Source: an uncultured bacterium (GTDB taxonomy: Bacteria; Hydrogenedentota; Hydrogenedentia; Hydrogenedentales; CAILVY01). From it: DNA of 64,000 nucleotides. The DNA is taken from the NCBI GenBank assembly GCA_937951485.1, contig CALEDJ010000068.1, positions 1 to 64,000 on the forward strand. Direction: 5' to 3'. A program made the translations under genes and the position numbers. Below the pieces are notes generated by a model. It saw only the letters and a program-made list of their open reading frames with translations, had not been told where the DNA came from and made no database searches. Shown here one piece after another: positions 55,001 through 62,238 of this stretch; the first letter of the stretch is position 1, and each line of letters begins with the position of its first letter.

Positions 55001-55346
55001 CGCACAAGGGCTGGAGGTTGCCGAGGTCTTCAAGGTCGGGCAGGGCCGCCCCAACATCGTGGACTGTATCATCAACGGCTATATTGACTGGATCATCAAC
55101 ACGCCGCTCGGCAGCGCCGCCAAGGCTGATGAACGCGACATCCGCCGCACCGCGCTCGAACGCGGCATCCCCATCATGACCACCCTGGCCGCCGCGCGGG
55201 CCGCCGTCCAGGCCATCCGCGCCATGCAGCAGGGGGCCATGGAAATCCTCGCTCTCCAGGAGCACCACGCAGCGATGCACGGCAAAAAACAGAAAGGACA
55301 AAAAGGACAAAGAGACGGAAAGGGGACGCCGCGCACAAAGAAATAG
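52047..55346 (+). CDS. carB: Carbamoyl-phosphate synthase large subunit
   Basis: 1099 residues. Two homologous ATP-grasp halves: [20 protein letters not shown] at the start and [20 protein letters not shown] near residue 566; ATP-grasp metal sites [20 protein letters not shown] and [20 protein letters not shown]; the oligomerisation domain between and an MGS-like allosteric domain ([15 protein letters not shown]) near the C-terminus. Makes carbamoyl phosphate for pyrimidines and arginine. The last ~20 residues after AAMHG are [20 protein letters not shown], low-complexity sequence translated from a purine-rich repeat and longer than E. coli CarB (1073). carA is not adjacent. A 723-residue antisense frame is a GC artefact. 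Confidence 0.96.
55283..55343 (+). repeat. Purine-rich AAGGACAAA repeat inside the 3' end of carB
   Basis: Near-tandem units AAAGGACAAAAAGGACAAAG with related GACGGAAAGGGGACG, read in frame as the Lys/Gly tail of CarB. Confidence 0.6.
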
Positions 55347-55380
55347 CGGCGCCGATCTGCATCTACTTCGCTACGGTTGT

Positions 55381-55502
55381 TTGAGTTTGTCGGGATTGTT
55401 GTCTTTGCCCTGCCGTTATCCTTGTTGTCCTTTTCGTCCCTGTCGTTACGTGCTGTCCTTTTCGCCCCTCGAGTCGTTTTTGTCCTTTCCGTCCTTTCGG
55501 GG
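55381..55502 (-). repeat. Related pyrimidine/purine repeat block between carB and iscS
   Basis: On the minus strand, repeated AAAGGAC, GAAAAGGAC and GGACAAAAACGAC units spaced about 10-20 bases; inverted relative to the carB-tail block, so the two could fold together. Confidence 0.55.
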
Positions 55503-55627
55503 TGCATTCTCCGCTTTCGCCACTGCAAGAAACTGTAGCGTGACCGGAATAATCTGTTACACTACCGGGTTGTGTCGGACTGAGGTGTGGTTGCGGTGAA
55601 AAGCCGCCCGATTCCACGAAGGAGCAG

Positions 55628-59462: not shown

Positions 59463-59804
59463 TGAAGGCTCCTGTGAGGCGCATCCATACCGGACAATTC
59501 CGTCCAGTCTTGGCGGCGGGAAATCGGTGTACCGGAATGGCGCGCCCCGCCACAAAACGCCTTTCTCGCTCCTGAATCTTATCAAATTATCCGTTGCGCC
59601 ACAATCGCCGACAAAGCCGCGCCTGGCGCTGTTTCGCTGCAATCAAGAAACAAATGTCGGGAAAAGCGGATTCCGGAGAGATTCAATGAAACAAGTCCGG
59701 GCCGGGCTGGGTCTAAAAACAGATTGCGCAATTTCCGAAAGGGTATAGGGCCTGCCGCAGCAGAGGTGTTTCCAGTCTCAGCAAAAACGACGAGGGAGGA
59801 TATC
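59463..59804. other. Divergent intergenic region between thiG and the M28 peptidase
   Basis: No gene seen. AGGGAGG near 59793-59799 is the ribosome site of the peptidase. TATAGG at 59746-59751 could be a weak -10 for it; TAAGAT on the minus strand near 59577 could serve thiG. I find no thiS-like small gene or TPP-box here. Confidence 0.35.
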
Positions 59805-62096
59805 ATGAACTTGTGCGGGAAAAAGAATTGGTTCAAGGCGATTCCCCTGCTGGCGGCTGTCGCGGCCGTTCTGTCCGCGTATTGGATGTCGTTGGCGCCA
59901 AGGCCCGTCCCGGCCACAGCGCCGCCCGATGTCTTTTCCGCGGAACGTGCGCACCGCCATATCGCGGCGAATTGCACGGAACCGCAGCCCGCCGGTTCCC
60001 TGAACAATGACCGCGCCTGCCGGTACATCCAGGAAGAACTTGAACGGTTGGGCGTGGAAAACGAATTGGTGCTGCGGTACGTGCGGACGGGCGAGCGGTC
60101 GGTATCGCGGTGGCGCGCGGTGTTGGGCCGCATCCGGGGCACAGACCCGACCAAGGCATTCGCGGTGGACGCGCATTTTGACTCGGTGCCCTGGGGACCC
60201 GGCGCGGCAGACGACTTTTCCGGCATTGCCGCGATGCTGGAGGCGGCGCGGGCGTTGAAGGCCGGGCCGCCCCTGAAAAACGACGTGATTTTCGTTTTTG
60301 CAGACCAGGAAGAGTTCAACATGGGCGGCGCAAAAGCCTTCCGCGATCATCCCTGGTTTCAGGAAGTCGGCGTCATGCTCGGCCTGGAGACACGGGGCAC
60401 CTCCGGTCCCGCGCTGATGTTTGAAACCTCGCCCAACAACGGCTTTGTCGTGCGGGAGATGGCGCGTTCCGGCGCGGGCGCGCGCGCCAACTCCATCATG
60501 TACGATTTCTACCGGCGCATGCCTTTCAACAGCGATTTTGACCACTACAAGCATCATGTCGCCGGCTTGAACGTCGCCTACATCAACAACTTCGATCATT
60601 ACCACACCATGCTGGACAATCCGGAGAATGTGAGCCTGGCCAGCCTGCAACACCATGGCAATTATGTGCTCGGACTGGCGCGTCATTTCGGCAATATCCC
60701 GCTGGACGACTGCTATGCGCCGGATGCAACCTATTTCAACACGATCGGCAACCACATGATCGTCTATCCGTTGTCCTGGGGAGGACCGCTTGCGCTGATT
60801 TCATTCGCCGTGGCGGCGATTGTACTGGGATTCGGTTTTGCCACCAGAAGGCTTTCCCCTGGCGGGACGGCGCTGGGTTTCCTGTATGTGTTGGTTGTCG
60901 CCCTCGTTTCTTCGTCCATTATCGGATTGGTCAGTTACTTGTTCTATCTGCGCCTTTACGAAACCGCCCTGTATCAGAACAACGTCTATGCGTTTGGATT
61001 CAACCTGATGGCGATTGGCGCTTTGGCGGCGATGGTGGGGCTGTTACGGGGTTGGGTACGCCCGCAGGAGTTTCTGGCGGGCGGCGTGCTCTGGTGGGCC
61101 TTGGCGTTGTACGGACTCCAGAAGTGGGCGCCGGGTGGCGCGCATCTGGCCATGATTCCGCTATTGTTCGGCAGCGTGGGATTGGCCGTGCTGCTGGCGC
61201 TCGCCGGGGACCGTCAGCCTTCGGACAAAGCGGTCGCGTGGTCGGTCGTCTTCGTGATTCCGGCGTTGATAGTCATCGCGCCGTTACTGGTCATGTCGGC
61301 ATACACCCTGACCGTGCTCGCAACATTCATGCTTGCGCCGATTGCCCTGCTGCTGTGCGCGTTGGTCGCGCCGCAGATATCCCTCGTTTCCCGGGCAGGT
61401 TTGCTCAAGACGGCCGGCGCGCTCGCCATCGCAGGCATTGCCTTGATCATTGTGGGATATATCCGCACCCTGCCCAGCCCTTCGAGTCCGCGCATCCACT
61501 GCCTCGCCTATGGTGTTGACTTCGACAAGGAAGAGGCGTACTGGCTGAGCGGCGACCGGGAACTCGATGAATGGACCTCGCTGTACATCCCCCAGGGAAC
61601 GGCGCGGCAGCGCCTCCCGGAATTTGTGGGCCGGGATCGTCACGAATACTTCATGGCGCCCGCGCCGATGCCGCCGTTTTCCAGGCCCATCCTGGAAGTC
61701 ATCGAGGATCGCGTCGAGAGTGGACGGCGAATTCTTGACTGCCGTCTCAACTCGCCCCGCGACGCACAACGCCTGTGGCTGCGCGTGGCATCCGACGCCA
61801 AAGTGCACCGCGCGGAAATTCTCGGCCATGAACTGCGCGGTTCGGACCGACAGTGGGATGCCAGTTTCGAGATTCTCCCCCGCGAAGGGGCCGACCTCCG
61901 GCTGGAGGTGGAACCCGGCACGCCGCTTGTCTTCGACGTGCGCGAGATGTCCTACGGGTTGCCGGAATTGCCGGAACTCAGGCCGCGCCCCGCACACATG
62001 ATCCCTGAACCCAACCGCCGTCTGGACCGCAGCCGCTCCCTGCACAGCGATTTCACGTACTCGATTGCCACGATTGATTTGGGAAGCGGGGCGTAG
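59805..62096 (+). CDS. Multi-pass membrane M28 zinc peptidase
   Basis: 763 residues from ATG 59805 (GGGAGG six bases upstream). N-terminal membrane helix (about 10-30), then an M28 aminopeptidase domain facing outward: HFDSVPWGPGAADDFSG at 124-140 (His 124 and Asp 137 as zinc ligands), the catalytic Glu pair ADQEEFNMGG (169-170), GLETRGTSGP, and the last ligand in YHTMLDNPENV. After that come eight or so membrane segments (about 325-560) and a C-terminal beta domain. The arrangement matches the vacuolar/ER M28 membrane peptidases (Pff1/ERMP1-like). It cleaves N-terminal residues from peptides. Convergent with the next gene. Confidence 0.87.
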   Translation: MNLCGKKNWFKAIPLLAAVAAVLSAYWMSLAPRPVPATAPPDVFSAERAHRHIAANCTEPQPAGSLNNDRACRYIQEELERLGVENELVLRYVRTGERSVSRWRAVLGRIRGTDPTKAFAVDAHFDSVPWGPGAADDFSGIAAMLEAARALKAGPPLKNDVIFVFADQEEFNMGGAKAFRDHPWFQEVGVMLGLETRGTSGPALMFETSPNNGFVVREMARSGAGARANSIMYDFYRRMPFNSDFDHYKHHVAGLNVAYINNFDHYHTMLDNPENVSLASLQHHGNYVLGLARHFGNIPLDDCYAPDATYFNTIGNHMIVYPLSWGGPLALISFAVAAIVLGFGFATRRLSPGGTALGFLYVLVVALVSSSIIGLVSYLFYLRLYETALYQNNVYAFGFNLMAIGALAAMVGLLRGWVRPQEFLAGGVLWWALALYGLQKWAPGGAHLAMIPLLFGSVGLAVLLALAGDRQPSDKAVAWSVVFVIPALIVIAPLLVMSAYTLTVLATFMLAPIALLLCALVAPQISLVSRAGLLKTAGALAIAGIALIIVGYIRTLPSPSSPRIHCLAYGVDFDKEEAYWLSGDRELDEWTSLYIPQGTARQRLPEFVGRDRHEYFMAPAPMPPFSRPILEVIEDRVESGRRILDCRLNSPRDAQRLWLRVASDAKVHRAEILGHELRGSDRQWDASFEILPREGADLRLEVEPGTPLVFDVREMSYGLPELPELRPRPAHMIPEPNRRLDRSRSLHSDFTYSIATIDLGSGA

Positions 62097-62120
62097 GTGG
62101 CGGGTGCGTCGGGTTTGATC

Positions 62121-62238
62121 CGAAAGACAGCAAGGACAAAAAGGACACAAGATAAAGATTCAGTTTAGACGCTTATATTCGGCGTCGGCCGTTTCCTTTA
62201 TTAGTCCTTTGTGTTCTTTTCGTTCTCTCTTTCTTCCT
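62121..62238. repeat. Third purine-rich repeat block, imperfect inverted repeat
   Basis: Left arm AGCAAGGACAAAAAGGACAC and following AAGATAAAG; right arm CTTTATTAGTCCTTTGTGTT and following CTTTTCGTTC. The arms can pair imperfectly around a small GACGC/GCGTC hairpin (near 62168-62186). It lies between two convergent genes and may also end transcription of both. Confidence 0.55.

What the first reader, a model, noticed from the sequence alone, without database searches (positions are those of the whole stretch)
55283..62238. Purine-rich AAGGACAAA repeats in three places, one extending the carB reading frame
Blocks at 55283-55343, 55381-55502 (inverted) and 62121-62238 share AAAGGAC / GGACAAAAAGGAC units. 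The first lies in frame at the carB 3' end and makes the Lys/Gly tail [20 protein letters not shown], beyond the usual CarB end. This looks like a spreading repeat that has altered an essential protein's C-terminus, or a set of long imperfect hairpins with a role in RNA ends.
Basis: partly seen in the sequence, partly recalled or inferred. Interest (0 to 1): 0.6.

Follow-up and report, generated by a model that had tools for sequence, protein, structure and literature searches.

The report
Nine-base GGAC repeats behind genes
Non-coding DNA across a whole bacterial phylum is sprinkled with short arrays of a nine-base repeat built on GGAC, often as facing pairs that can fold into hairpins just behind genes; here one array sits on the stop codon of the essential gene carB and adds an apparently meaningless 20-residue tail to the protein.

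Summary
The blocks are two inverted pairs of a genome-wide family of arrays in strict 9-nt phase (unit NNNNN-GGAC). In the host's intergenic DNA, GGAC pairs occur 72/48/36/26 times at spacings 9/18/27/36 against 3.6 expected. The three-unit pattern has 235 hits, its reversed control 15. All ten strict pairs run GGAC arm then GTCC arm, and the GGAC arm is usually within 80 nt of a stop codon (24 of 28). The family is common but patchy across the phylum (68 genomes) and occurs in some Desulfuromonadales and one Planctomycetaceae genome. CarB's tail is unique to this genome; purN, a GT9 enzyme and a hydrolase-GNAT ORF also end in array-coded tails. The host lacks detectable reverse transcriptase and Y1 transposase. 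Closest described kind: heptamer repeats of Xanthomonas and Nostoc (PMC4692102), with the same stop-codon placement and convergent pairs. Best reading: a degenerate tandem-repeat family tolerated in 3' flanks, whose hairpins may shape RNA ends; the carB tail is a by-product. How it spreads is unknown.

The parts
52047..55346 (+). carB (carbamoyl-phosphate synthase large subunit), 1099 aa, with about 20 array-coded residues at the C-terminus
   Evidence: ORF; Pfam CPSase_L and MGS domains end by residue 1045; relatives stop at about residue 1078
55283..55343 (+). purine (GGAC) arm of pair 1, in frame at the carB end, codes the [20 protein letters not shown] tail; exact GGAC at 55296, 55305 and 55324 (the last one base out of phase)
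55403..55498 (-). pyrimidine (GTCC) arm of pair 1 in two runs (about 55418-55439 and 55455-55494), between carB and the class-V aminotransferase (nifS/iscS-like) gene
62123..62147 (+). purine arm of pair 2, 26 nt after the stop codon of an M28-peptidase-like gene (ORF 59724-62096)
62203..62230 (-). pyrimidine arm of pair 2 (degenerate), close to the 3' end of the convergent minus-strand ORF 62249-63976
   Evidence: (D2)
7025..7064 (-). fourth array, flavour NNGTCGGAC, in frame at the end of the hydrolase-GNAT ORF (7013-8338); codes SSDAPDVSDLPDPSDAAG
   Evidence: homologues lack it

Best explanation
The blocks belong to one family of dispersed, degenerate tandem arrays with a 9-nt unit (five loosely constrained bases followed by GGAC). 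Arrays accumulate in non-coding DNA, mostly just behind stop codons, because that is where an insert does least harm (the 60-100 nt before start codons are avoided). Many come as two facing arrays, GGAC units first and GTCC units second, that can pair into an imperfect stem in RNA or single-stranded DNA. The unit is three codons long and its common flavours hold no stop codon, so an array that lands on a stop codon lengthens the upstream protein; this happened to carB and at least three other sampled genes. Shown: the phase, the enrichment, the pair order, the stop-codon proximity, the absence of the tails from relatives, one empty orthologous site in another genus. Inferred: that the arrays are mainly selfish or neutral, that the CarB tail is tolerated rather than useful, and that arrays grow by slippage or recombination. 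What copies them to new places, and why GGAC is kept while the next two bases drift, is not known.
For: Strict 9-nt spectrum in intergenic DNA of two genomes, absent from coding DNA beyond the usual 3-nt bias. 235 hits vs 15 control in the genome; 33 of 68 phylum genomes above 3x control. 32 of 322 intergenic regions hold a seed vs 4.9 in shuffles. GGAC arm within 80 nt of a stop in 24 of 28 arrays, the GTCC arm in 3 of 29; blocks closer to the stop than to the start in 22 of 27 tandem regions, a bias fully explained by sparing 60-100 nt before start codons. Only 2 of 35 strict blocks are in divergent regions. Copy number differs sharply between same-genus species (G012 249 vs G004 22; G065 672 vs G066 36), and an orthologous intergenic region has an array of about 64 nt in G012 and none in G004. 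CarB, PurN and GNAT tails are absent from relatives.
Against: Pure neutrality does not explain why GGAC is kept (match to neighbouring unit 0.62-0.69) while the next two bases are near random (0.31, 0.38), nor why the same core and phase recur in other phyla, nor the fixed GGAC-then-GTCC order. Most pairs fold better than shuffles, though they were picked for complementary arrays.
Confidence: 0.6

Rival explanations
1. The facing pairs are functional 3'-end elements: RNA hairpins that end transcripts or protect mRNA 3' ends in both directions, kept by selection.
For: Fixed GGAC-then-GTCC order and closeness to stop codons; most pairs fold better than shuffles; in flavour A the downstream arm is U-rich; in Xanthomonas transcripts start or stop at comparable G4-forming repeats more often than at control repeats (PMC4692102).
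Against: Many arrays are unpaired; bases outside the core are no more complementary between true partners than between permuted ones (only a slight whole-arm excess, 14 of 300 permutations reach it); the carB pair does not fold better than chance; no terminator-like call; flavour GTCGGAC lacks a U tract; very patchy between sister species.
Confidence: 0.22
2. The arrays are tandem binding sites of a chromosome-organising or regulatory protein that reads NAGGAC-type sites every 9 bp.
For: Motif-level rather than pair-level conservation; Geobacter metallireducens has paired tandem 7-8-mer arrays read as global regulator sites (PMC2700814).
Against: 9 bp is not a helical repeat; flavours differ strongly within one genome; divergent (promoter) regions are avoided; no candidate protein known.
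Confidence: 0.1
3. A reverse transcriptase of the DRT10/telomerase type writes the repeats: its template has an A-B-A' layout with a 4-base anchor, as GGAC would be.
For: DRT10 makes 9-nt tandem repeats by re-annealing a 4-base anchor while the rest may vary (PMC12632851), which fits an invariant GGAC plus a variable five.
Against: No RVT_1 match at all in the host genome (94% complete) nor in other carriers such as G065, G017, G060, G012 and G010; units differ within one array.
Confidence: 0.03
4. REP/REPIN-like non-autonomous elements moved by a Y1 (RAYT) transposase.
For: Intergenic, inverted doublets able to form hairpins; density correlates with Y1_Tnp number (Spearman 0.47).
Against: No Y1_Tnp match in the host; both densities rise with genome size; the unit is a 9-nt tandem repeat, not a 20-40-bp palindrome.
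Confidence: 0.05

Closest known systems
Heptameric G-rich tandem repeats of Xanthomonas (GGGAATC) and Nostoc (GGGGA[C/T]T), PMC4692102
   Same: Short degenerate unit with a fixed G-rich core and variable positions, few units per array (mode four), intergenic, sense arrays within 50 bp of or overlapping stop codons, many convergent pairs that can form inverted repeats (70-75 cases per Xanthomonas genome), scarce between divergent genes, no link to insertion sequences
   Different: Unit 7 nt, not 9; GGG core that can form G-quadruplexes; reported from two unrelated genera; not a multiple of three, so no tail in constant frame
Paired tandem 7-8-mer arrays and the GGGACCG heptamer of Geobacter metallireducens, PMC2700814
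   Same: Three to five tandem short units, several classes paired on opposite strands at variable distance, dispersed, unknown function; one has a GGAC core
   Different: Unit length and sequences differ; proposed there as regulator binding sites or regulatory RNA elements
REPINs / REP doublets, PMC3116915
   Same: Intergenic inverted doublets able to form hairpins, dispersed, selfish-looking
   Different: Built from REP palindromes and tied to RAYT transposases; no Y1 gene found here
Borg tandem repeats, PMC9879509
   Same: Tandem repeats that evolve fast, lie between or inside genes, and add low-complexity protein segments when the unit is a multiple of three
   Different: Perfect repeats of unrelated sequence at each site; no common core, no inverted pairs
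Rickettsia palindromic elements (from memory, not tested)
   Same: Dispersed hairpin repeat that also sits in frame in essential proteins
   Different: A longer palindrome, not a 9-nt array

Membership tests
Degenerate short-unit tandem repeats of the Xanthomonas/Nostoc kind | Several tandem short units with fixed core and variable positions, dispersed genome-wide | tested here: met
   9-nt phase, GGAC core, 3-17 units, mode 4-5
Degenerate short-unit tandem repeats of the Xanthomonas/Nostoc kind | Sense arrays close to or over stop codons, scarce between divergent genes | tested here: met
   24 of 28 GGAC arms within 80 nt of a stop; 2 of 35 blocks divergent
Degenerate short-unit tandem repeats of the Xanthomonas/Nostoc kind | Convergent inverted pairs | tested here: met
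   10 of 10 pairs GGAC then GTCC
Degenerate short-unit tandem repeats of the Xanthomonas/Nostoc kind | Heptamer with GGG able to form a G-quadruplex | tested here: not met
   Unit is 9 nt with GGAC; GGG only in some flavours
REPIN | RAYT (Y1) transposase in the genome | tested here: not met
   PF01797: no match in the host, 94% complete
REPIN | Inverted doublets forming hairpins | tested here: met
Telomerase/DRT10-type templated repeats | Reverse transcriptase gene in carriers | tested here: not met
   PF00078: no match in the host and several dense carriers
Intrinsic terminator | GC-rich stem followed by a U tract | tested here: not met
   No site at either window pair
Intrinsic terminator | Transcripts end there | not testable with these tools
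   No RNA data
Known RNA family | Rfam match | tested here: not met
   No match at window 48000-64000

The most novel reading that the evidence does not exclude
A so far undescribed process, shared by distant phyla, writes or copies 9-nt arrays anchored on GGAC behind genes, without a recognisable reverse transcriptase or Y1 transposase, and in passing hangs low-complexity tails on housekeeping proteins.
Probability: 0.17. Interest if true: 0.75.

Novelty: new variant of a known kind. Interest (0 to 1): 0.5.

Why it matters
Short tandem repeats with 6-9-nt units are little studied in bacteria. This family shows the same placement and pair geometry as the Xanthomonas/Nostoc heptamers but with another unit length, another core and a phylum-wide range, which points to a general process rather than a genus oddity. 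Because its unit is three codons, it is also a natural source of C-terminal tails on essential enzymes, and annotators should not take such tails for conserved domains.

Tried and rejected
Uptake-sequence type signal: rejected, since GGAC pairs at spacings other than multiples of 9 are at background. Decayed protein repeats: rejected, since the arrays are mainly intergenic and read in several frames and both strands. Reverse transcriptase and Y1 transposase as drivers: absent from the host. Exact inverted copies: rejected, outside the core the bases pair no better than with permuted partners. Chance: rejected. A paper search for the literal repeat strings gave two unrelated papers for GGACAAAAAGGAC and nothing for the other flavours. 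The phylum is not named by the tools; that it is Hydrogenedentota is a guess from its size and structure.

Full report
What is there. They form two inverted pairs: 55283-55343 (GGAC arm) with 55403-55498 (GTCC arm), and 62123-62147 with about 62203-62230. A fourth array, of another flavour, codes the end of the minus-strand ORF 7013-8338.

Is it more than chance. In about 104 kb of intergenic DNA from four contigs of the host (G000, 4.55 Mb), GGAC recurs at spacing 9, 18, 27 and 36 with counts 72, 48, 36 and 26, where 3.6 are expected and every other spacing up to 39 gives 9 or fewer; coding DNA shows only the usual 3-nt bias. A second genome of the order gives 75/44/29/29. Genome-wide, GGAC-N5-GGAC-N5-GGAC has 235 hits against 15 for the pattern read backwards. 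Intergenic regions with a seed: 32 against 4.9 in shuffles.

The unit. Beside a seed pair of units, the next unit keeps G, G, A, C at 0.62-0.69 and the three bases before GGAC at 0.60-0.68, while the two bases after GGAC match at 0.31 and 0.38. Flavours include AGCAAGGAC, AAAAAGGAC, GGGTCGGAC, CAGTCGGAC here and AGGATGGAC, CTATAGGAC, AGAGTGGAC elsewhere. Strict arrays in the host have 3 to 17 units, most often 4 or 5.

Arrangement. All ten strict pairs run GGAC arm then GTCC arm. Reading from a stop codon, the GGAC arm starts within 80 nt in 24 of 28 arrays and the GTCC arm in 3 of 29. In tandem regions 22 of 27 blocks are nearer the stop than the start; a null that merely spares the last 60-100 nt before start codons explains this (P = 0.21 and 0.73, against 0.001 without sparing). 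So placement by itself does not prove function. Strict blocks in divergent regions are 2 of 35. Genes were called with a simple codon-usage script, so single boundaries may be wrong, and part of the sample behind searches was chosen because it held hits.

Structure. Fourteen of 19 paired elements from several genomes fold with z below -2, but they were chosen for complementary arrays, so this is partly built in. The pair at 62 kb is among them; the carB pair is not. Between true partners the core positions match (0.69-0.83), the first three variable ones do not (0.38-0.55), and overall complementarity is only slightly above permuted partners (0.64 vs 0.61; 14 of 300 permutations reach it).

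The protein tails. CarB of relatives ends near LQEYHAGLxK. From the MTTLAAARA motif to the end, 106 other CarBs have a median of 34 residues and the window 56; the one other of similar length (Nitrosospira, 55) is unrelated in sequence. Three more sampled ORFs of the host end in array-coded tails: purN (AEDRTDRTDRTHK), a GT9 glycosyltransferase (KDDKDKKDKKDSEDG...) and the hydrolase-GNAT ORF (SSDAPDVSDLPDPSD). PurN of 14 relatives and the GNAT homologues read lack them; in G010 a separate array stands right behind the purN stop codon. Homologues of the GT9 gene were not checked. Other genera carry arrays of other flavours behind carB.

Range. All 68 genomes held of the phylum (one order) were counted: 33 exceed three times the control, and sister species differ widely. 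At one orthologous intergenic region G012 has a six-unit array that G004 lacks. Of 21 genomes of other phyla, two stood out by flavour and pairing though not by total count, a Planctomycetaceae MAG and Geoalkalibacter; several further genomes of the latter's order carry short hairpin pairs with the same core and phase, some in the opposite order.

Drivers. The host has no match to RVT_1 or Y1_Tnp. Density correlates with Y1_Tnp, but both rise with genome size. A DRT10-like origin is attractive in form (9-nt repeats, 4-base anchor) but fails the gene test.

Comparison. The nearest described kind is the heptamer repeat of Xanthomonas and Nostoc: same degenerate unit structure, same stop-codon placement, same convergent pairs, same avoidance of divergent regions, and no mobile-element link. 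Geobacter metallireducens has paired tandem 7-8-mer arrays. The present family differs in unit length, core and range and, being three codons long, in its frame-neutral effect on protein ends. I therefore call it a new variant of a known kind. No paper found describes it; only open-licence papers were searched.

Verdict. Real, phylum-wide, and of a poorly understood kind; the CarB tail is most likely an accident of it. The spread mechanism and the constancy of GGAC remain open.

Noticed in passing
window 7013-8338 (-): One ORF joins an alpha/beta-hydrolase-like part (residues 1-266) to a GNAT-like part (279-422); in G002 the two are separate neighbouring ORFs.
   Followed up: partly
G000 C5 about 40350-40480 and C7 about 123380 (loci L147, L161): Another dispersed repeat, GTTCTGG[A/T]GTACAGGCTT[C/T][A/G]GCCTG, lies between or near the arms.
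   Followed up: no
G016 C1 (L195-L214), sample positions 80053 and 83334: Long GGAC arrays of flavour NNAGTGGAC lie inside called genes and would code amino-acid repeats.
   Followed up: no
G000 C40:4236-7445: A second CarB-like gene (54% identity) in the host; several relatives also have two.
   Followed up: no
G097 (order of Geoalkalibacter), e.g. C107:1603-1650, C145:6150-6206: Pairs of flavour CTATG/CTATA run GTCC first and GGAC second, the opposite of the order in the host.
   Followed up: no
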